Assembly: GCA_022425945.1 (NCBI GenBank)
Contig: JAKMEK010000058.1
Location: 1-54,408, forward strand
Direction of reading: 5' to 3'
DNA: 54,408 nt
From: Flavobacteriaceae bacterium
Lineage (GTDB): Bacteria > Bacteroidota > Bacteroidia > Flavobacteriales > Flavobacteriaceae
The notes under the pieces are model-generated. The model was not told the origin of the DNA and searched no databases. It saw only the letters and a program-made list of their open reading frames with translations. How positions within the stretch are numbered: the stretch's first letter is position 1; every line of letters begins with the position of its first letter. Position numbers and translations under genes: made by a program. Shown here in pieces: positions 12,308 through 20,698 of this stretch.

Positions 12308-12572
12308 GAATTAGGAATTAAAAATTAGGAATTAAGAATTAATTTCATTCCTAATTGAACTCTTCTTAATTATCAATTGAACACTTCCTAATTACCTCAC
12401 TGCGTTCAGCCAGTCGCTTCACTCGTCTCTTAATTTCCAATTCATAATTGTTAATTGCAACGCTATGCTCAGCCAGTCGTCTTCGCCTTTGGCAGATCCT
12501 CTTGTCCCAATTGCCTCGCTTCGCTCAGCCAGTTCGCCAACTGCGTTGGCTCGTGTCCTAATTCCTAATTCC
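12308..12572. repeat. AATT-bounded hairpin repeat array, locus 1
   Basis: The left end is made of short AATTAGGA/AATTAAGA-like units and the right end of their reverse complements (TCCTAATT). Between them lie three GC-rich cores bounded by AATT: 12390-12431 (diverged), 12453-12508 (56 bp, with GCC-TTT-GGC) and 12509-12559 (51 bp, with GCCAAC-TGC-GTTGGC). All share CAGCCAGT. The 51-bp unit is identical to the one at 13822. The array starts at the base after the HIT stop and runs through the stop codon of the convergent kinase. Confidence 0.85.
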
Positions 12573-13733
12573 TCTGTCTTTTTTCTGCAATACTATTTCA
12601 AAGGTCGTTCCTTTTCCCAGCTTACTTTCTTTCACCCAAATGGAGCCCTTGTGGTATTCGTGTATGATGCGATGAGCCAGTGAGAGTCCCAAGCCCCAAC
12701 CTCTAGATTTGGTTGTAAAGCCTGGTTGAAAAATTTTCTTAAGGTGTTTGGGAGCAATACCGCTTCCTTCATCTTTGACCAACAAGCGAATATCGTGTTC
12801 ATGTTCGATGAGTTGAATTTGTATTTGCCCGATTCCTTTCATGGAGTCCAATCCATTTTTGACTAAATTTTCCAATGTCCAGCTCAATAGGGAGTCGTTG
12901 AGCGGTAGAAGAATTTCCTTTTCTGGGAGATCGACTGCCCATTGGATTTGTTTCCCGGTACGTTTTTGGAGGTAAGCAATGGTTTCTCGGGCAATGTGGA
13001 CGATATCTTTTTGGAGTAATTCAGGCAAGGAGCCCACTTTTGAAAAACGTTCTGTAATTACTTCTAAGCGTTCAATGTCTTTTTGCATCTCTTCAATTGA
13101 GGCGGGGGCAATGTTTTGCTCCTTAAGTAAGTCTATCCACCCCATGAGTGAACTCAGCGGTGTGCCAATTTGGTGGGCGGTTTCCTTCGCCATACCGGCC
13201 CATAAACGATTTTGTTCTGCAGCCTTATTGGTTTGAAAGAAAAAGTAAAGCAGGCCTCCAAACAGCAATATGATGAGTAGTAGGGCTAGGGGATAATACT
13301 GCAATTTTACCAGCAAGAGCGAATCTCCGTAATACAAATTCTGATTAATGATGTCTTTATATACAATGGGAATGGGGGCATTTTGTTTTTTAAGCTTAGC
13401 TAGGGATGCATACAATGCCAAAGAATCGGGATCGTCCTCTGAATTCCATTCAATGTTTCTGAAGTCAATTATTTTCCCTTCTTCATTGACCTGAATCATG
13501 GGGGTAATTCCAATTTTCTGCAAAACATCAAAGGTAAGTGTGCCATAATCTCGGCTCAAATCATTGCTCTCCACCAATTCTTTTTGTGCGGTGGCCCAGA
13601 GTTCCATCTTGGTGCGCTCCTCATTTTTCAACACTTGAAACAACACATTTGTGTTCCACAAAATGAGACTTACAATGCCAAAAGCTCCCAAGAGCCCCCA
13701 GTTTTTCCACAAAGATTTAAAGGATCGAAACAC
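12558..13733 (-). CDS. Membrane sensor histidine kinase without adjacent response regulator
   Basis: This 391-residue kinase has two membrane helices (about 13-34 and 147-166) around a sensor loop of about 110 residues. The dimerisation/H-box is AKETAHQIGTPLSSL (His187). The ATPase domain shows the N box (LENLVKNGLDSM), DEGSGI and GWGLGLSLAH. It should autophosphorylate on His187 and pass the phosphate to a regulator, but none is encoded next to it. The start codon is GTG at 13733, 41 bases after a TAACTTTG box. The last three codons and the TAG stop are formed by the AATTAGG repeat sequence, so the original C-terminus may have been altered. Confidence 0.92.
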   Translation of the reverse strand: MFRSFKSLWKNWGLLGAFGIVSLILWNTNVLFQVLKNEERTKMELWATAQKELVESNDLSRDYGTLTFDVLQKIGITPMIQVNEEGKIIDFRNIEWNSEDDPDSLALYASLAKLKKQNAPIPIVYKDIINQNLYYGDSLLLVKLQYYPLALLLIILLFGGLLYFFFQTNKAAEQNRLWAGMAKETAHQIGTPLSSLMGWIDLLKEQNIAPASIEEMQKDIERLEVITERFSKVGSLPELLQKDIVHIARETIAYLQKRTGKQIQWAVDLPEKEILLPLNDSLLSWTLENLVKNGLDSMKGIGQIQIQLIEHEHDIRLLVKDEGSGIAPKHLKKIFQPGFTTKSRGWGLGLSLAHRIIHEYHKGSIWVKESKLGKGTTFEIVLQKKDRGIRN

Positions 13734-13773
13734 TACGTTTTACTTAACGTCTCAAGTTACCGAATATTATTGA

Positions 13774-13781
13774 CAAAGTTA
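13774..13781 (-). promoter_or_regulatory. -7 box of the sensor kinase gene
   Basis: TAACTTTG on the minus strand is an exact TAnnTTTG element, 41 bases upstream of the GTG start. A TTTG lies only 13 bp further upstream, too close to be a standard -33 box. Confidence 0.45.
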
Positions 13782-13821
13782 AAAAGCCCATTGCCAAACG
13801 GATGCTCGTCCTCTCACTCTC

Positions 13822-13923
13822 AATTGCCTCGCTTCGCTCAGCCAGTTCGCCAACTGCGTTGGCTCGTGTCCTAATTGCCTCGCTACGCTCAGCCAGTTCG
13901 CCAACTGCGTTGGCTCGTGTCCT
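13822..13923. repeat. Tandem pair of 51-bp repeats, locus 2
   Basis: Two head-to-tail 51-bp units (13822-13872 and 13873-13923) differ by one base (CGCTTCGC against CGCTACGC). The first is identical to 12509-12559. Each can form the hairpins CAGTT-CGCC-AACTG or GCCAAC-TGC-GTTGGC, which exclude one another. Translating the pair gives a repetitive Ser/Ala/Leu-rich peptide, which is not a gene. The pair sits between the divergent kinase and DUF3127 genes. Confidence 0.92.
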
Positions 13924-13964
13924 AATTCTTCCCTTTTTCTTTCGTATTTCCCTCTTGGTTTATG

Positions 13965-13972
13965 TACTTTTG
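13965..13972 (+). promoter_or_regulatory. -7 box of the DUF3127 gene
   Basis: TACTTTTG matches TAnnTTTG and lies 18 bases before the ATG at 13991. The -33 region is weak. Confidence 0.5.
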
Positions 13973-13990
13973 GGGTTTAAATTTATAGTC

Positions 13991-14368
13991 ATGGAAGTAG
14001 CAGGAAAAATTAAATGGTTGGACGAAACCAAAACCTACGGATCAAACGGATTTCGCAAACGCGAAGTGGTTGTTACCACAGAAGAGCAATACCCACAGCA
14101 TATTTTGGTGGAATTTGTTCAGGATAAATGTGATTTACTCAACAGTTTTCAGCTGGGACAAAGTGTTAAGATTGGGATTAATCTTCGTGGTCGTGAGTGG
14201 GTAAACCCACAAGGGGAAACCAAGTACTTTAACTCTGTACAAGGCTGGCGAATAGAAGCTGCTGCTGGCAATGCGGGTCCGGCTGACATGCCGCCCATGC
14301 CCCCTGCCTCTGCATTTGAAGCTGCTCCAGACAACAACAACGAAGTAGAAGACGATCTACCATTCTAA
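13991..14368 (+). CDS. DUF3127 protein with SSB-like acidic C-terminal tip
   Basis: This 125-residue cytoplasmic protein starts MEVAGKIKWLDET and is beta-rich over the first 95 residues (VKIGINLRGREW, then YFNSVQGWRIE), which fits the DUF3127 family. A flexible Ala/Pro/Met-rich linker follows, and the protein ends EVEDDLPF. That ending closely resembles the DDDIPF tip with which SSB recruits DNA repair and replication proteins. An OB-like fold and a nucleic-acid role are therefore plausible, but this is inference. The start is set by the -7 box and the family N-terminus; a longer frame runs back through the tandem repeats and was rejected. Confidence 0.82.
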   Translation: MEVAGKIKWLDETKTYGSNGFRKREVVVTTEEQYPQHILVEFVQDKCDLLNSFQLGQSVKIGINLRGREWVNPQGETKYFNSVQGWRIEAAAGNAGPADMPPMPPASAFEAAPDNNNEVEDDLPF

Positions 14369-14453
14369 AGGCTAGCCGCTAAGCCGATAAGCAAAGGTCA
14401 ATCGCTCTTTTCTAATTGAATCATTCTTAAATAGATAATTATTCAAAGAGTTA

Positions 14454-14484
14454 TTGTCATTCAAAAATTATTGTCTTACATTTG
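14454..14484 (+). promoter_or_regulatory. Promoter of rplM-rpsI
   Basis: TTG (14454-14456), a 20-bp spacer and TACATTTG (14477-14484) match the consensus. The GTG start of rplM is 43 bases after the -7 box. The stretch between 14369 and 14453 shows only a small GGCT/AGCC hairpin. Confidence 0.72.
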
Positions 14485-14527
14485 CAGCCCCTTAATGGGA
14501 GAAAAATACTAGATAAAACAATTTATT

Positions 14528-14983
14528 GTGGATACATTAAGTTATAAAACCATCTCGGCCAATGCCAACACTGTTGATAAACAATGGTTAGTTGTAGACG
14601 TTGCCGGCATGCCTTTAGGAAGAATGGCCTCTGAAGTTGCGAAACTTATTCGAGGAAAGCACAAACCCAATTACACTCCTCACGTTGACTGTGGAGATAA
14701 TGTAATCGTCATCAATGCGGAGCAAATCCAGTTGAGCGGGGAGAAGTGGAAACAAAAAATCTATTTGCGTCACACAGGTTATCCTGGTGGACAACGTGCC
14801 TTGAGCGCTGAGCAATTATATGCTAAGAGCCCATCGCGTTTGGTAGAAAACGCAGTTCGCGGAATGTTGCCTAAGAACAAATTAGGTGCTGTTCTTTTCA
14901 GAAACTTAAAAGTATTTAATGGATCGGAGCACAGTCATGCTGGATTAAACCCGACCACCATTCAACTTAATAAATTCAACTAA
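14528..14983 (+). CDS. rplM: Large-subunit ribosomal protein L13
   Basis: This 151-residue uL13 shows the family patterns [16 protein letters not shown] near the start and [18 protein letters not shown] in the middle. It is an early-binding 50S protein. The start codon is GTG; no ATG is available at a suitable position. Its stop overlaps the ATG of rpsI by one base (TAATG), the classic L13-S9 coupling. Confidence 0.97.
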
Positions 14984-15369
14984 TGGACGTAATTCACACC
15001 ATCGGTCGTCGTAAGACATCTGTCGCACGTATCTTCTTATCAGAAGGAAAAGGAGAAATTACCGTAAACAAAAAAGGGTACGAAACTTATTTTCCAACTT
15101 CTACCTTACAATACAAAATCCAACAGCCTTTTGCCTTAACAGAAACCCAAGGAAATTATGACCTTAAAGTTACTGTAACAGGTGGAGGAATCAACGGACA
15201 AGCAGAAGCCGTTCGTTTAGCCATCTCACGCGCACTTTGCCAAATCGACGAAGAAAATCGTTTGGTGTTAAAACCAGAAGGTTTGTTGACACGTGATCCA
15301 CGTATGGTAGAGCGTAAGAAATTCGGACAGAAGAAAGCCCGTAAGAAATTCCAATTCTCGAAACGTTAA
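14983..15369 (+). CDS. rpsI: Small-subunit ribosomal protein S9
   Basis: This 128-residue uS9 has the typical N-terminus ([11 protein letters not shown]) and a basic C-terminal tail ending FQFSKR, which reaches the P-site tRNA in the 30S subunit. It is translationally coupled to rplM by a one-base overlap. A structured gap of 155 bp separates it from rpsB. Confidence 0.98.
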
Positions 15370-15378
15370 TATTTTTTG

Positions 15379-15490
15379 CTTCTTTTCGCAAAAAGAAGTT
15401 GTTCATATATTTTTTAACCCGTTGCCCACTCAGCTCGCTGAGATTAGTTTAGCATCTAAATTGTCAAGGCCCGTTTTTTCGGCCACTTGA
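15379..15490 (+). promoter_or_regulatory. Structured leader upstream of rpsB
   Basis: Four short hairpins follow one another: CTTCTTTT/AAAAGAAG (15379-15398), CTCAG/CTGAG (15429-15442), TTTAG/CTAAA (15448-15460) and TCAAG/CTTGA enclosing GCCCG-T6-CGGC (15464-15490). The first could act as a weak terminator for rpsI. The others lie in what would be the rpsB leader and may be an autoregulatory S2-binding site; that is inference. Confidence 0.4.
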
Positions 15491-15524
15491 TGATTGCTAA
15501 CTACGGAACGTAAACTAACCAAAA

Positions 15525-16334
15525 ATGGCAAACACAGACGTAAAAGACCTGCTCAACGCAGGCGTACACTTCGGTCACTTGACCCGCAAATGGAATCCTA
15601 ACATGGCGCCCTATATCTATATGGAGCGTAACGGAATCCACATCATCAACTTGTACAAAACTGCAGCTAAAGTAGACGAAGCGGCAGAAGCAATGAAGAA
15701 AATCGCTGCTTCTGGACGTAAAATCCTTTTTGTTGCGACCAAGAAACAAGCCAAAGACATCGTATCAACCAAAGCTGCTGAGGCAAAAATGCCATACATC
15801 ACAGAGCGTTGGCCCGGTGGAATGTTGACCAACTTTGTCACCATTCGTAAGGCGGTGAAGAAAATGGCTGCCATCGATCGCATGAAGAAAGACGGTACCT
15901 TTGAAACACTTTCGAAAAAAGAAAAATTACAAGTAAGCCGTTTACGCGCAAAATTGGAAAAGAACTTAGGTTCAATCACCGAAATGACACGTTTACCTGG
16001 AGCTTTATTTGTTGTTGACATCAAGCGCGAGCACATTGCGATCAAAGAAGCACAGAAATTGAAAATTCCAATTTTTGCCATGGTTGACACCAACTCTGAT
16101 CCACGCGATGTAGACTATGTTATTCCATCCAATGATGATGCATCTAAATCAATTGACAAAATTTTAAGCATCGTTACTTCTGCAGTAAGCGAGGGTTTAA
16201 CTAATCGTCAGTCAGAGAAAGATGCTGAAAATAAAGGACAAGAAGCAGCCCCTGCTGCTCCAGCCGCTGAGGCCGCTGCACCAGTAGTAGAAGCCGCTCC
16301 AGCAAAAGAAGGAGACGCACCTGCTGAGGCATAA
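15525..16334 (+). CDS. rpsB: Small-subunit ribosomal protein S2 with Ala/Glu/Pro-rich tail
   Basis: This 269-residue uS2 has the core family features (AGVHFGHLTRKWNPNM, FVATKKQAKD, ERWPGGMLTN, NSDPRDVDYVIPSNDD). It joins the 30S subunit late. From about residue 228 the protein continues as a low-complexity Ala, Pro and Glu tail, which is longer than in many bacteria and resembles the linker on L21 in this genome. rpsB-tsf is the usual pair, with 92 bp between the genes. Confidence 0.98.
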   Translation: MANTDVKDLLNAGVHFGHLTRKWNPNMAPYIYMERNGIHIINLYKTAAKVDEAAEAMKKIAASGRKILFVATKKQAKDIVSTKAAEAKMPYITERWPGGMLTNFVTIRKAVKKMAAIDRMKKDGTFETLSKKEKLQVSRLRAKLEKNLGSITEMTRLPGALFVVDIKREHIAIKEAQKLKIPIFAMVDTNSDPRDVDYVIPSNDDASKSIDKILSIVTSAVSEGLTNRQSEKDAENKGQEAAPAAPAAEAAAPVVEAAPAKEGDAPAEA

Positions 16335-16426
16335 GCCAAAAACAATAGTAACAACCTTAAGCAAAGCTAGGGAATAGCTTTTACGCAAAGCCATTTCCTA
16401 GTTTTCTACTTTATAATCAATATATT

Positions 16427-17248
16427 ATGAAAATTACTGCATCAGAAGTAAATAAATTACGTCAGGCCACAGGAGCTGGTATGATGGACTGTAAAAAAGC
16501 CTTAGTTGAAGCAGAAGGAGACTTCGACAAAGCGGTTGAGAATTTACGTAAGAAAGGACAAAAAGTGGCAGCCAATCGTGCTGACCGCGATTCAGCTGAA
16601 GGAGCTGTTTTAGCCAAAGTAAACGCAGACAATACTGCAGGAGTAGTGGTTTCTGTAAACTGTGAAACGGACTTTGTTGCTAAAAATGATAGCTACCTAG
16701 CTTTAGCCAACCAAATTTTAGACATTGCTTTAGACAAAGCTAGTTTAGAAGAGCTTTTGGCGGCTGATTTTGGAGGAATGAGTATCGCTGACAAATTAAC
16801 AGAGCAAACAGGTGTGATTGGAGAGAAAATTGAAATCGGTGGTTTCAAACGTATCGAAGGTCCTTTTGTTGGGCACTACATCCACGCCGGAAACAGAATC
16901 GCTACCTTGGTCGGTCTCTCTGCCGCGGTAGATGGTGCAGGCGAAGCGGCTAAAAATGTTGCCATGCAAGCTGCAGCAATGAACCCAATCGCTTTGAACG
17001 AAGACGGCGTTGACGCTTCAGTCATTGAAAAAGAAATCGAAATTGCCAAAGACCAATTGCGTCAAGAAGGCAAGCCAGAAGCAATGTTAGACAATATTGC
17101 CAAAGGAAAAATCAAGCGTTTCTTTAAAGACAACACCTTGGTCAACCAAGACTACATCAAAGACAGTAAACAATCGGTGACACAATACGTACAGTCGGTT
17201 GATGCTTCTTTAGAAGTAACTGCCTTTGCGCGTTTAGCACTCGACTAA
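16427..17248 (+). CDS. tsf: Translation elongation factor Ts
   Basis: This 273-residue EF-Ts contains the TGAGMMDCKKAL signature in its N-terminal UBA-like domain and the core domain signature (NCETDFVAKND, then HYIHAGNRIATLVGL). It exchanges GDP on EF-Tu. The gap from rpsB contains an imperfect hairpin (CTAGG near 16368 with CCTAG near 16397), which might set the S2 to Ts ratio. A clear terminator follows the gene. Confidence 0.98.
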   Translation: MKITASEVNKLRQATGAGMMDCKKALVEAEGDFDKAVENLRKKGQKVAANRADRDSAEGAVLAKVNADNTAGVVVSVNCETDFVAKNDSYLALANQILDIALDKASLEELLAADFGGMSIADKLTEQTGVIGEKIEIGGFKRIEGPFVGHYIHAGNRIATLVGLSAAVDGAGEAAKNVAMQAAAMNPIALNEDGVDASVIEKEIEIAKDQLRQEGKPEAMLDNIAKGKIKRFFKDNTLVNQDYIKDSKQSVTQYVQSVDASLEVTAFARLALD

Positions 17249-17281
17249 ACCAACCCCACATATCGGACGATTCGTCCATTG

Positions 17282-17313
17282 AAAAAGCCTGTACAATTTG
17301 AACGGGCTTTTTT
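17282..17313 (+). terminator. Intrinsic terminator after tsf
   Basis: AAAAAGCCTGT (17282-17292) pairs with ACGGGCTTTTT (17302-17312) through one G-U pair around a 9-base loop, giving a stem that ends in a T run. It closes the ribosomal protein cluster. Confidence 0.88.
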
Positions 17314-17317
17314 GATT

Positions 17318-17490
17318 TAATTAAGAATCCAATTAACAATTACGAATTGGGAATCAACTTGGTTTCCATTTTTATCGCTCAATTTTCACCTTCATTTAAC
17401 CACTTACTCCAAACCGAACGTCAACCGAAGTCGTTTGGCACCAACTGCCTTGGCTCGTGTCCCAATTCCCAATTCCTAATTCCTAATTAA
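17318..17490. repeat. AATT-bounded hairpin repeat, locus 3
   Basis: AATT-containing short units (AATTAAGA, CAATTA, GAATTGGGAAT) start at about 17318. The right part has a diverged core, CCAA-CTGCC-TTGG followed by CTCGTGTCCCAATT, then the repeated CCTAATT units that end directly at the polA stop codon (17491). Bases 17360-17430 between the two parts show nothing recognisable. Confidence 0.7.
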
Positions 17491-20313
17491 CTAGTGTGCT
17501 TCCAGCCAATTATCGCCAATACCGACATCTACCACCAAAGGTACCTCAAGGGAAAAGGCATTTTCCATTTCGTGTTTGACCATTTCGGTGAGGGCATCTA
17601 CCTCTGTTTTGGGAACGTCAAAGACCAATTCATCGTGGACTTGTAGCAGCATTTTACTGGCCCAAGGTTCGTTTTTCATGCGTTTATGAATGTTGATCAT
17701 GGCTATTTTAATGACATCCGCAGCGCTTCCTTGGATGGGTGCGTTGACGGCGTTTCGCTCTGCAGCTCCGCGCACAATGGCGTTTTGCGAGTTGATGTCT
17801 TTGAGGTAGCGTCGGCGACCCAAGACAGTCTCGACATAGCCATTTTCTCGGGCAAAGTCCACCTGACTACTCATGTAGGCCTTGAGTTGCGGATAGGTCG
17901 CGTAATAGGCCTCGATAAGTTCTTTGGATTCGCTTCTACTGAGGTTGGTTTGTTGGCTTAGGCCAAAGGCGGAGACACCATAGACAATTCCAAAATTCAC
18001 CGTTTTGGCGTTGGAGCGTTGTTCACGGGTGACGGCCTCAAGGGGAACATCAAATACTTTGGCAGCAGTGGTTGCATGAATGTCTTCTCCTTTTTGGAAG
18101 GCTTCGACCATGGCCGGATCTTTGCTCAAGGCAGCGATGATGCGCAGTTCTATCTGGGAGTAATCGGCCGCGAGGAGAACGTGGTTTTCATCGCGGGGAA
18201 TAAAGGCTTTTCTGACCTGCTGCCCGCGCTCGGTTCGCACAGGGATATTCTGTAAGTTGGGTTGGTTAGAGCTAAGGCGTCCGGTCGCTGCTACCGCCTG
18301 ATTGTATACGGTATGTACTCTGTTGGTTTTGGGGTTGATTTCTTCTGGGAGTGCCGTTACATAGGTGCTTTGTAGTTTGTTGAGGGAACGCCAGTTCAGG
18401 ATATCATCGACAATGGGATGGTCTTTGGCCAAGGCACTCAACACATCTTCTGCAGTGGAGTATTGCCCCGTTTTGGTTTTCTTGGGCTTGTCGACCAGTT
18501 TCAGTTTTTCAAATAAAATGGGTCCCAATTGTTTGGGTGAAGCTAAATTGAATTCTTCTCCTGCCTGTTCGAAGACGCTTTTTTCAAGTCGTTCAATGTC
18601 GGTGGCTAGTTCACCCTCAAAATTCTTGAGGAAAGCAGTATTGAGGTTGATGCCTTCTTGTTCCATGGCTGATAGCACTTCCACCAAGGGTAATTCTACC
18701 TCTTGGAAGAGTTTTCCGTTTTCTGCGGCGGCCAGTTCTTGGTCAAAATAGTGTTTGAGCTGAAGGGTGATATCGGCATCTTCGACCGCATATTCGGTTT
18801 GCAAATCGAGGGGCACATCGCGCATAGAACCTTGGTTTTTTCCTTTCTTCCCGATGAGTTCCGTGATGGATTGCGGCTCGTAGTTGAGGTAGGAGCTGGC
18901 CAAAATGTCCATGCTATGACGGCGGTCGGGATTAATGAGGTAATGGGCGATCATGGTGTCGTAAAAGGGCCCAACGACCTGTAAAGAATAATTGGACAAT
19001 ACCTTGAGGTCGTACTTTAGGTTATGGCCAATTTTTTCAATCTTCGGATTTTCAAAGAAGGGACGAAATTGATCCACTACCGCTTGGGCAGCGCTTGGGT
19101 CTTCGGGTACATGGACATAGTAACCTGTTCCTACTTCCCAACTAAAGGCAATTCCTACCAAGTCGGCCTCGAGGGCTTTGAGGCTGGTGGTTTCTGTATC
19201 GAAGCAAACGGAGCTTTGCTGTTGTAGGTTATCCAACAAAATGCGCATGCCCATGGGGCTGTCCACAAACTGATAATGGTGTTTGCTGTTGGCTAGATTT
19301 TTCTTGCTACTTGGCATTACTTCGGACACATTTCCTGCGCCTGCGGCGAAAAGGTCCATTTGTCCGTCAAAGGTTGCGGCTGGTGCTGCTTTGGTTGCCT
19401 CAGCAGCTTTTGGAGCTGGACTGACGTCTTGGCCAAATATTCGCTGGATATTTTCCTTCATGCGGCGAAACTCCAAGGTATCAAAAACTTCCCCCACCGC
19501 AGGGAAATCTGGGTCGGTCAATTGATAGGCTTCTGCTTCAAAGTTGACGGGAACATCGAGGAGAATTTTTGCCAATTCTTTGGAAAGTAAGCCCAGATCT
19601 TTGTTGGCCTCCACCTTTTCTTTCATCTTTCCTTTGAGCTCATGGGTATTGGCCAAGAGGCCTTCCATGCTGCCGTAAGCTTTGAGGAATTTCTTAGCGG
19701 TTTTATCGCCCACTCCCGGGAGTCCGGGGATATTGTCTACCGCGTCTCCCATCATCCCTAAATAATCAATGACTTGTTCTGGACGCTCAATTTCAAATTT
19801 TGCCTGTACTTCAGGGATCCCCCAAATTTCGATGCCATTCCCCATTCGCGCTGGGCGGTACATGAAAATATTTTCCGACACCAGTTGCGCGAAGTCTTTG
19901 TCGGGCGTAACCATAAAGGTTTTAAAGCCTTCTTTCTCGGCTTGCTTGGCGAGGGTTCCAATGATGTCATCGGCTTCGAAGCCGGCCATTTCGACCACTG
20001 GGATATTCATTTTGTGGAGTATTTCCTGAATAAAAGGTACCGCAATTTTTATGGCTTCAGGCGTTTCATCCCGATTGGCTTTGTATTCGCCAAAGAGTTC
20101 GGTTCGTGAAACTGATCCGCCCTTGTCAAAACAAACGGCCAAATGATCTGGACGCTCTTTTTTGATGACATCCAAAAGGGAATTCATAAAACCGAAAATA
20201 GCAGAGGTATCCATTCCCTTGGAGTTAATGCGTGGGTTTTTGATGAAGGCATAATAACCACGAAAAATTAACGCAAATGCATCGAGTAAAAAGAGCCGTT
20301 TTTGTGCTGACAT
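17491..20313 (-). CDS. polA: DNA polymerase I
   Basis: This 940-residue enzyme has all three domains. The 5' nuclease spans about 1-290 (LFLLDAFALIFRGYYAF at the start, GDAVDNIPGLPGVGDKTA inside). The 3'-5' exonuclease spans about 370-540 and keeps its metal-binding FDTETT, so proofreading is probably active. The polymerase shows motif A (DYSQIELR), motif B (RSNAKTVNFGIVYG) and motif C (QVHDELVFDVP). It fills repair gaps and removes RNA primers. The start at 20313 fits the family; a longer frame of 20 residues would be read from the adjacent repeat array. Both ends of the gene adjoin repeat arrays. Confidence 0.97.
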   Translation of the reverse strand: MSAQKRLFLLDAFALIFRGYYAFIKNPRINSKGMDTSAIFGFMNSLLDVIKKERPDHLAVCFDKGGSVSRTELFGEYKANRDETPEAIKIAVPFIQEILHKMNIPVVEMAGFEADDIIGTLAKQAEKEGFKTFMVTPDKDFAQLVSENIFMYRPARMGNGIEIWGIPEVQAKFEIERPEQVIDYLGMMGDAVDNIPGLPGVGDKTAKKFLKAYGSMEGLLANTHELKGKMKEKVEANKDLGLLSKELAKILLDVPVNFEAEAYQLTDPDFPAVGEVFDTLEFRRMKENIQRIFGQDVSPAPKAAEATKAAPAATFDGQMDLFAAGAGNVSEVMPSSKKNLANSKHHYQFVDSPMGMRILLDNLQQQSSVCFDTETTSLKALEADLVGIAFSWEVGTGYYVHVPEDPSAAQAVVDQFRPFFENPKIEKIGHNLKYDLKVLSNYSLQVVGPFYDTMIAHYLINPDRRHSMDILASSYLNYEPQSITELIGKKGKNQGSMRDVPLDLQTEYAVEDADITLQLKHYFDQELAAAENGKLFQEVELPLVEVLSAMEQEGINLNTAFLKNFEGELATDIERLEKSVFEQAGEEFNLASPKQLGPILFEKLKLVDKPKKTKTGQYSTAEDVLSALAKDHPIVDDILNWRSLNKLQSTYVTALPEEINPKTNRVHTVYNQAVAATGRLSSNQPNLQNIPVRTERGQQVRKAFIPRDENHVLLAADYSQIELRIIAALSKDPAMVEAFQKGEDIHATTAAKVFDVPLEAVTREQRSNAKTVNFGIVYGVSAFGLSQQTNLSRSESKELIEAYYATYPQLKAYMSSQVDFARENGYVETVLGRRRYLKDINSQNAIVRGAAERNAVNAPIQGSAADVIKIAMINIHKRMKNEPWASKMLLQVHDELVFDVPKTEVDALTEMVKHEMENAFSLEVPLVVDVGIGDNWLEAH

Positions 20314-20339
20314 GGAAGCTTGTTTTAATGCTCTAATAT

Positions 20340-20698
20340 AGGGAATTGACAATTGACAATTGGGAATTCTCAATTGGGAATTAAGAATTAATAATTAATT
20401 TCATTTCTAATTAAACACTTCCTAATTCCCTCGCTGCGTTCAGCCAGTCGTCACCGCCTTTGGTGGATTCTCTTGTCCTAATTGAACACTTCCTAATTCC
20501 TAATTCTCAATTCTTAATTCCTAATTCCCAATCATTCCCTTCGGTCATTAGTTTACCCAATGGCCACGGTTGTTGAGTATCGTTGGCGTGGCTCACGAAG
20601 CATGTCACCTCGACAAGCTCGGTGTCCCAATTCCTAATTGAACACTTCCTAATTCTCAATTCCTAATTCACAATTCCCAATTCTTAATTCCTAATTAC
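20340..20698. repeat. AATT-bounded hairpin repeat array, locus 4 (polA-dxs intergenic)
   Basis: This array fills most of the 399-bp gap between the divergent polA and dxs starts. It holds runs of AATT-centred units, a 56-bp core at 20424-20479 with the hairpin CACC-GCCTTT-GGTG (closely related to 12453-12508, with changes on both sides of the stem), and a different, larger hairpin core at about 20540-20625 (GCCACG...CGTGGC) that ends in CTCGGTGTCCCAATT. The right end consists of TCCTAATT, TTCTTAATT and CTCAATT units and reaches the dxs -7 box. Confidence 0.85.

What the first reader, a model, noticed from the sequence alone, without database searches (positions are those of the whole stretch)
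12308..20698. Family of AATT-bounded, hairpin-forming intergenic repeats at four loci
Four intergenic regions (12308-12572, 13822-13923, 17318-17490, 20340-20698) carry the same design: AATTAGGA-type units on the left, their reverse complements on the right, and GC-rich hairpin cores between AATT borders. Cores come in at least three kinds (51 bp, 56 bp and a larger GCCACG...CGTGGC type), and most share CAGCCAGT or CTCGTGTCC. The two 56-bp cores keep a hairpin while both arms change, which suggests selection on structure. Nothing like a transposase is nearby. They may be REP-like non-autonomous elements moved by a distant RAYT or another enzyme, or terminator/RNA-stability modules.
Basis: partly seen in the sequence, partly recalled or inferred. 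Interest (0 to 1): 0.75.

Follow-up and report, generated by a model that had tools for sequence, protein, structure and literature searches.

The report
Mobile islands with seven-base repeat arms
The four repeat clusters look like small DNA insertions whose ends are mirrored runs of a seven-base unit, built like insertions in other bacteria that carry a small gene, which points to a little-noticed kind of mobile DNA.

Summary
The repeats are real: 4 islands with AATT every 7 bases (19 hits genome-wide, reversed control 0) and, in islands 1, 3 and 4, inverted ends. Island 1 is an insertion: the flanking stop codons lie 1-9 bp apart in 12 genus relatives, 49 bp in one, 207 in G013, 250 here. 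G013 keeps the sites with other content.

The REP/RAYT reading is not supported: no Y1 transposase in this genome or G013, few copies, core hairpins no better than shuffles, no covariation. Islands 2 and 4 lie between divergent genes, so they are not terminators.

The unexpected link is to PF05635 (23S-rRNA intervening-sequence protein, IVP) genes. In Bacteroidota, inverted 7-bp arms flank 24 of 40 such loci against 8 of 200 control genes. On Nostocales plasmids, occupied/empty pairs show arms plus gene as one insert, and gene-less armed islands occur at the same or neighbouring junctions. G013's only IVP gene, truncated, lies at the orthologue of island 3.

Best reading: gene-less members of a mobile heptad-armed class. 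Movement by IVP is inferred.

The parts
12308..12572 (.). Island 1, between the stop codons of a HIT-family gene (+) and a histidine-kinase gene (-)
   Evidence: insertion by stop-to-stop gaps in 15 genus genomes; RNA fold z -3.6
12309..12340 (+). left arm of island 1, AATTAGG-type tandem 7-mers
12394..12431 (+). short core (about 38 bp), CCTCACTGCGTTCAGCCAGTCGCTTC type; similar copies at orthologous sites in G013
12457..12508 (+). 56-bp-type core, copy 1
12513..12559 (+). 51-bp-type core, copy 1
12559..12571 (+). right arm of island 1 (CCTAATT units), also supplies the stop codon of the histidine kinase
13822..13927 (+). Island 2: two tandem 51-bp cores with AATT borders and no heptad arms, between divergent histidine-kinase and DUF3127 genes
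   Evidence: similar borders with one different core in G013 (L023 8205-8275, read)
17318..17490 (.). Island 3, between tsf (+) and the stop codon of polA (-); the orthologous site in G013 holds a truncated PF05635 gene
   Evidence: RNA fold z -3.0
17330..17354 (+). left arm of island 3
   Evidence: I20
17441..17463 (+). partial 51-bp-type core
   Evidence: 91% over 17441-17474, arm included
17464..17488 (+). right arm of island 3, AATTCCC/AATTCCT units, next to the polA stop codon
20340..20698 (.). Island 4, between divergent polA and dxs
   Evidence: RNA fold z -6.1
20344..20396 (+). left arm of island 4
   Evidence: (I1, 80% complementary over 51 nt)
20428..20479 (+). 56-bp-type core, copy 2; related copies at G000:C8 and G013:C1
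20495..20526 (+). internal heptad run
20533..20628 (+). large core ending in CTCGACAAGCTCGGTGTCC
20651..20696 (+). right arm of island 4, CCTAATT-type units
   Evidence: (I1)

Best explanation
The four loci are gene-less members of a class of small intergenic insertions ('heptad-armed islands'): tandem units of about 7 bp on the left, the reverse complement of the same units on the right, and a variable cargo between. In other genomes the cargo is often a PF05635 (IVP/S23, four-helix-bundle) gene; here it is GC-rich repeat cores. An island enters at a gene junction, stays there for long times, and changes its cargo by recombination between copies and slippage in the arms. The transcribed arms pair into a long stem, as in 23S-rRNA intervening sequences, which could let RNase III trim the insert and make it harmless. 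Shown: 7-bp inverted arms (islands 1, 3, 4), insertion at island 1, same sites with different content in G013, arms plus gene as one insert and gene-less forms at the same or neighbouring junctions in Nostocales plasmids. Inferred: that the window islands descend from IVP-bearing ones, that island 2 (no arms) belongs by its shared cores, that IVP moves them in trans (it is not found in this genome), how cargo is exchanged, and the RNA-trimming step.
For: Heptads: 19 hits vs 0 in the reversed control. Insertion: HIT-to-kinase stop gap 250 bp (G000), 207 (G013), 49 (G003), 1-9 in the 12 other genomes with both genes. Island 2: two 51-bp cores here, one short core in G013 between similar borders. 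Each of the 5 strict heptad islands of the window has an inverted partner on its inner side, z 3.7-15.6. G013 has one PF05635 match in 2.2 Mb, at the orthologue of island 3, its frame ending 44 bp from an AATT array. Of 16 exact AATTCCT arrays in the other genomes of a 395-genome phylum sample, 3 have an IVP frame in the fetched flanks, next to the array when read. PF05635 loci of the phylum, 40 non-redundant of 69 scored: inverted-arm z>3 in 24 of 40 (direct 6) vs 8 of 200 control small genes (direct 12); best lag 7 in 55 of 80 flanks vs 30 of 400. Nostocales and other cyanobacterial plasmids: inverted z>3 in 8 of 15, direct 2 of 15, lag 7 best in 21 of 30 flanks. Occupied/empty pairs at five junctions. 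Gene-less inserts with arms: L251 and L284 at a junction that also takes an IVP insert (inverted z 4.6 each), L285 at a neighbouring junction.
Against: No PF05635 gene in G000 (genome incomplete) and no IVP remnant in the window islands, so descent from IVP islands rests on shared architecture and one orthologous locus. Strong heptad arrays also occur alone: in 400 kb of G127, 9 strict lag-7 islands, none within 300 bp of 3 IVP frames and none with an inverted partner (0 of 18 sides with z>3); in 400 kb of G163, 1 island and 6 IVP frames, none together at the strict threshold. 16 of 40 Bacteroidota and 7 of 15 plasmid IVP loci do not reach inverted z>3; in L233, L139, L129, L131 and L153 the direct similarity is far the stronger. 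13 of 16 AATTCCT arrays have no IVP frame in the fetched flanks. Island 2 has no arms. Over whole halves, direct similarity exceeds inverted in islands 1, 2 and 4. No constant target duplication. L285 reaches only z 2.3. The z-values rest on shuffles of 3-base blocks, and the plasmid set had no control genes.
Confidence: 0.55

Rival explanations
1. The heptad arms are plain slippage products in tolerant intergenic DNA. REP-like cores and, elsewhere, IVP genes merely insert into such tracts.
For: Heptad arrays without IVP are common (9 strict ones in 400 kb of G127; 13 of 16 AATTCCT arrays without an IVP frame). PMC4692102 (passages read) reports heptamers as over-represented repeats and quotes polymerase slippage as an explanation.
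Against: Insertion into a pre-existing tract predicts the same orientation on both sides; at IVP loci inverted dominates (24 vs 6 of 40; 8 vs 2 of 15). The empty sites read at five junctions show no heptad array (L248-L250, L252-L254, L256-L258). The HIT-kinase junction has 1-9 bp in 12 relatives.
Confidence: 0.25
2. REP/REPIN-type elements moved by a RAYT lost from, or missing in, this assembly.
For: Short, intergenic repeats of several types; the genome is 85.7% complete in 98 contigs; one genus member (G018) has a Y1 transposase.
Against: 0 PF01797 in G000 and in G013 (94% complete, 4 contigs), which carries related islands. Few copies. Core hairpins not better than shuffles.
Confidence: 0.08
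3. Transcription terminators or mRNA-stabilising stem-loops kept by selection.
For: Islands 1 and 3 lie between convergent genes and fold better than shuffles as RNA.
Against: Islands 2 and 4 lie between divergent genes; 12 genus relatives have 1-9 bp at site 1; content differs at orthologous sites; no Rfam match up to E 1.
Confidence: 0.07
4. Ordinary MITEs of a DNA transposon with fixed terminal inverted repeats.
For: Inverted ends, small size, insertion between genes.
Against: Judged on IVP-bearing relatives: arm sequence differs from locus to locus while left and right of one locus match (median pairing score 20 within loci vs 13 for swapped pairs; two islands of plasmid pNe_5 carry GGGAGTA and GGGAACA arms). 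No constant target duplication.
Confidence: 0.05

Closest known systems
23S-rRNA intervening sequences (IVS) with IVP/S23 reading frame (Coxiella, Leptospira; PMC4990558: part 1 of 6 of the text and further passages read)
   Same: Insert bordered by complementary ends that form a stem-loop; some carry a PF05635-type (S23) frame; sporadic, thought horizontally moved; a mobility role of the ORF is quoted there from Ralph and McClelland 1993.
   Different: The window islands lie between protein genes, not in rRNA; their arms are tandem 7-mers; cargo here is GC-rich cores; RNase III excision untested.
Heptanucleotide repeats of Xanthomonas and Nostoc (PMC4692102, passages read)
   Same: Intergenic tandem 7-mers; places conserved between relatives while length and sequence vary.
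   Different: In the passages read they are treated as simple repeats and quadruplex formers, not as arms of an insert.
Small dispersed repeats inside heptamer tracts of cyanobacteria (Elhai et al. 2008; recalled, paper not held)
   Same: As recalled: short elements within heptad surroundings, as in L284/L285.
   Different: Not compared directly; other phylum.
REPINs and RAYTs (PMC3116915, passages read)
   Same: Short intergenic palindromic elements, possibly moved in trans.
   Different: No RAYT found here, few copies, no hairpin core better than shuffles.
TAACTGA heptamer repeats of Beggiatoaceae, Cyanobacteria and Bacteroidetes (PMC4679880, passages read)
   Same: Intergenic direct heptamer repeats in two of the same phyla; patchy distribution suggesting horizontal spread.
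   Different: Read there as possible regulator sites upstream of start codons; other sequence; the words S23 and helix bundle do not occur in that text.

Membership tests
REP/REPIN with RAYT | Y1 (RAYT) transposase in the genome | tested here: not met
   PF01797: 0 in G000 (85.7% complete), 0 in G013, 1 of 19 genus genomes
REP/REPIN with RAYT | High copy number | tested here: not met
   51-bp core 3 full + 1 partial; 13 matches to a core+heptad query in G000, 9 in G013, many of them heptads only
REP/REPIN with RAYT | Imperfect palindromic core | tested here: not met
   z of 7 cores between -1.55 and +0.33
REP/REPIN with RAYT | GTAG/CGTC tag at one end | not tested
   -
IVS/IVP element | Complementary ends forming a long stem | tested here: met
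   islands 1, 3, 4; not island 2
IVS/IVP element | PF05635 reading frame (not obligatory in rRNA IVSs, recalled) | tested here: not met
   0 in G000; truncated copy at the orthologue of island 3 in G013
IVS/IVP element | Location inside rRNA | tested here: not met
   between protein genes
IVS/IVP element | RNase III excision from the transcript | not testable with these tools
   -
Heptad-armed island (class proposed here) | Tandem units of about 7 bp in inverted arms | tested here: met
   islands 1, 3, 4; island 2 has AATT borders only
Heptad-armed island (class proposed here) | Insertion at a gene junction with an empty site in relatives | tested here: met
   island 1; islands 2-4 not resolved
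MITE | Constant terminal inverted repeats and target duplication | tested here: not met
   judged on IVP-bearing relatives: no constant duplication at five junctions, arms differ between loci
Intrinsic terminator | Lies downstream of a gene end | tested here: not met
   islands 2 and 4 lie between divergent gene starts; islands 1 and 3 do lie at gene ends

The most novel reading that the evidence does not exclude
PF05635 (IVP/S23, Avd-like) genes are the cargo of a widespread class of 'mRNA intervening sequences' in Bacteroidota and Cyanobacteriota: palindromic inserts with locus-specific heptad arms that drop into gene junctions and are neutralised by RNA trimming, copied with the help of the IVP protein, perhaps with a reverse transcriptase as Avd does in diversity-generating retroelements. 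The heptamer repeats long noted in cyanobacteria and Xanthomonas are in good part their arms and footprints, and the window islands are gene-less copies.
Probability: 0.3. Interest if true: 0.85.

Novelty: new variant of a known kind. Interest (0 to 1): 0.62.

Why it matters
IVP genes occur in 297 of 395 Bacteroidota genomes sampled (278 over the curated cut-off) and PMC4990558 says that proteins of this family have no known function; intergenic heptamer repeats are an old puzzle (PMC4692102, PMC4679880). The two are linked here in two phyla, with empty-site evidence that arms and gene arrive together, and with gene-less forms like those in the window. If right, this gives the IVP family a role as a mobile-element protein, explains part of the heptamer repeats, and predicts a testable RNA-trimming step. 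None of the titles and abstract starts listed by the ten answered library searches (one search found no paper, one search listed 3 of 39,214) showed such a connection; the library is partial and is searched by words only.

Tried and rejected
RAYT search in own genome and genus: none in G000 or G013. Exact scan of genome contigs for core end plus heptad (TCGTGTCCYAATTCNNAATT): 8 stretches, of which G013's contig is the genuine one; the other 7 show no run of three AATT heptads in the DNA held; that tool may leave out records near the window's genome. Rfam on 12-21 kb: nothing up to E 1. Covariation of the 56-bp core: not supported. Hairpins of single cores: not supported. IVP remnant in the window islands: none; best window frame E 2.8. 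Strict heptad-island scan of 400 kb each of G127, G163 and G013: heptad arrays occur without IVP; a follow-up shows that the 9 of G127 have no inverted partner. This counts against a one-to-one link. First swap control of arm pairing was contaminated by homologous loci (maximum 167, above the best observed 74), so it was redone on 40 non-redundant loci with shuffles and 200 control genes; the control genes were not cleared of IVP genes. The PF05635 loci came from the best-scoring listed places of the phylum search, mostly one per genome, not a random sample. L259, first taken for a gene-less insert, holds an annotated small gene and no heptads. Elhai 2008 is not held. The term 'S23 ribosomal' gave 0 papers.

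Full report
What is there. The window is one whole contig (C68) of a 1.83 Mb, 98-contig, 85.7% complete genome. The four islands sit between HIT and histidine-kinase genes (convergent), histidine kinase and DUF3127 (divergent), tsf and polA (convergent), and polA and dxs (divergent). AATT recurs every 7 bases; a four-unit pattern hits 19 times in the genome, 15 of these in the window, with 0 for the reversed control. Further AATT heptad places lie at C3:20313 and C8:26392, with weaker ones at C96 and C22. The 51-bp core is confined to this contig in its own genome.

The outer arms, not the cores, carry the structure. The outer 60 bp of islands 1, 3 and 4 match better inverted than direct (z 5.6, 7.6, 9.9 against 3.0, 4.0, 4.5), and each of the five strict heptad runs has an inverted partner on its inner side (z 3.7-15.6). 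Over whole halves direct similarity is stronger in islands 1, 2 and 4, since cores and inner runs recur in one direction. The islands as RNA fold better than shuffles (z -3.6, -3.0, -6.1 for islands 1, 3, 4). The GC-rich cores alone do not, and the claimed compensatory change is not supported. Island 2 is two tandem 51-bp cores without heptad arms.

They are insertions that stay put and change content. Of 19 genus genomes, 16 have the histidine kinase and 15 of these also show the HIT gene in the fetched DNA: the stop-to-stop gap is 250 bp in G000, 207 in G013, 49 in G003 and 1-9 in the other 12. G013 is 80-88% identical over the flanking blocks. It has AATT heptads and related cores at the orthologues of islands 1, 2 and 3, with other content: for instance one short core where G000 has two 51-bp cores, between similar borders; at the orthologue of island 4 it has a different insert with weaker AATT ends (read by eye). 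Heptad-like stretches are also visible at the polA-dxs junction of G017, G015 and G005 (by eye; G017 also).

The lead to IVP. Exact AATTCCT arrays occur in 16 of 395 phylum genomes, this one included. Of the 16 arrays in the other genomes, three have an IVP-like frame in the fetched flanks (L082, L083, L095), next to the array when read. In G013 the only PF05635 match (profile positions 53-105, E 2.4e-11) is at the orthologue of island 3, where it forms the end of a 246-codon frame and is followed by AATT heptads and a core. G000 has none, and 2 of 19 genus genomes have one (G013, G014).

Arms are a general property of IVP loci. PF05635 is found in 297 of 395 phylum genomes, 278 over the cut-off, up to 11 scored copies per genome. 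I took 70 loci from the best-scoring listed places (30, 40), dropped one cut by a contig end, and removed homologous loci, leaving 40. Inverted pairing of the two 200-bp flanks reaches z>3 in 24 of 40, direct in 6 of 40; for 200 control small genes from G127, G163 and G013 the numbers are 8 and 12 (Mann-Whitney p 1.7e-17 for inverted z). The best lag is 7 in 55 of 80 flanks against 30 of 400. The unit differs from locus to locus. Against a one-to-one link, a strict scan shows heptad arrays without IVP and IVP genes without strict arrays. The lone arrays of G127 differ from the window's, however: 0 of 18 sides have an inverted partner at z>3.

The same in cyanobacteria, with empty sites. A tblastn search of plasmids with a Bacteroidota IVP finds 32 records, at least 20 of them Nostocales by genus name. 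Of 25 listed I read 15: inverted z>3 in 8, direct in 2; lag 7 is best in 21 of 30 flanks (two of the loci, L240 and L242, are near-copies, and no control genes were used). Six of the proteins, five from plasmids, were checked and are PF05635. Related plasmids give empty sites (read): between integrase and a hypothetical gene, 3 bp in three plasmids against about 510 bp more with GGGTGTA arms plus IVP; between TraM and a hypothetical gene, 42-bp spacers against 486 and 479 bp with GGGAACA arms plus IVP; two junctions of one operon, used separately on plasmids pNsp_a and pNsp_c of one strain and empty on pNsp_b; and between ribonucleotide-reductase genes. No constant target duplication is seen (a TTCTA and an ATG repeat in two cases, none clear in the others). 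At the TraM junction one plasmid carries a 250-bp spacer with arms and no gene (L251), and another a gene-less insert with AATTCAA heptads around GC-rich palindromes (L284); L285 has AATTCGT/AATTACG runs at the next junction downstream of the integrase one, which has 2 bp in L252-L254. L284 and L285 have the design of the window islands; their inverted z is 4.6 and 2.3, L251's 4.6.

How it most likely works. Steps shown: insertion at junctions, inverted 7-bp arms, cargo either IVP gene or GC-rich cores, persistence of place with turnover of content. Steps inferred: the arms of one locus match each other rather than those of other loci (with the flaw told under Tried and rejected), which points to local copying or to selection for pairing in the transcript; by analogy with rRNA intervening sequences (PMC4990558, part 1 of 6 and passages read) the transcript stem could be cut by RNase III. 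The IVP fold is solved (PDB 2gsc, 2rld) and weakly resembles Avd of diversity-generating retroelements (PF22296 below its cut-off in 4 of 6 proteins; similarity also stated in PMC10053308, passages read), so help to a reverse transcriptase is a possible route of copying. None of this is tested.

Comparison and novelty. It is not a REP/RAYT system by three tested features, and not a set of terminators by location. It shares the stem and the protein family with IVSs but not the rRNA site; it shares heptads with cyanobacterial and Xanthomonas repeats. The combination, and the gene-less form at the same sites, is what seems new; that rests on ten answered library searches, of which I saw listings only, apart from the papers named above, and on a library that lacks most subscription papers.

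Noticed in passing
L103 (G361), L109 (G157), L082 (G481): By eye, IVP genes with heptad arms seem to lie inside large methyltransferase-like genes (restriction or BREX type, not searched) rather than between genes; a chance to see whether the insert is read through or trimmed.
   Followed up: no
L233, L236, L239: IVP genes sit inside CRISPR gene clusters of cyanobacterial plasmids: between cas6 and cas4 (two plasmids) and between Cmr2 and Cmr3 genes, as annotated.
   Followed up: partly
L023 12189-12926 (G013): A surface-protein-like reading frame runs into the C-terminal half of an IVP gene beside polA.
   Followed up: partly
window 12558-12575: The histidine kinase's last residues (RGIRN) and stop codon are supplied by the heptad arm.
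   Followed up: partly
L049 (G010) and L054, L055, L056, L059 (G018, G008, G006, G016), polA flanks: Other genus members carry different imperfect-palindrome families (TTTCTCCG...CGGAGA; CTCGATACAATTC...) near polA, seen by eye; the neighbourhood may be a lasting landing place.
   Followed up: no
L129 (G110): CTTCGACTCCGCTCAG-type REP-like cores on both sides of an IVP gene, together with TTAGCTG-type heptads.
   Followed up: no
L173-L192 (G127): Strong heptad arrays of several unit types (GGCTAAA, TGATAAC, AATTCCT, ATTACGA) without an IVP gene nearby and without inverted partners; their origin is not explained.
   Followed up: partly
PDB 2gsc (XCC0516) and PMC4692102: A solved IVP protein comes from Xanthomonas campestris, a species reported as rich in GGGAATC heptamers; whether its gene has such arms was not checked.
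   Followed up: no
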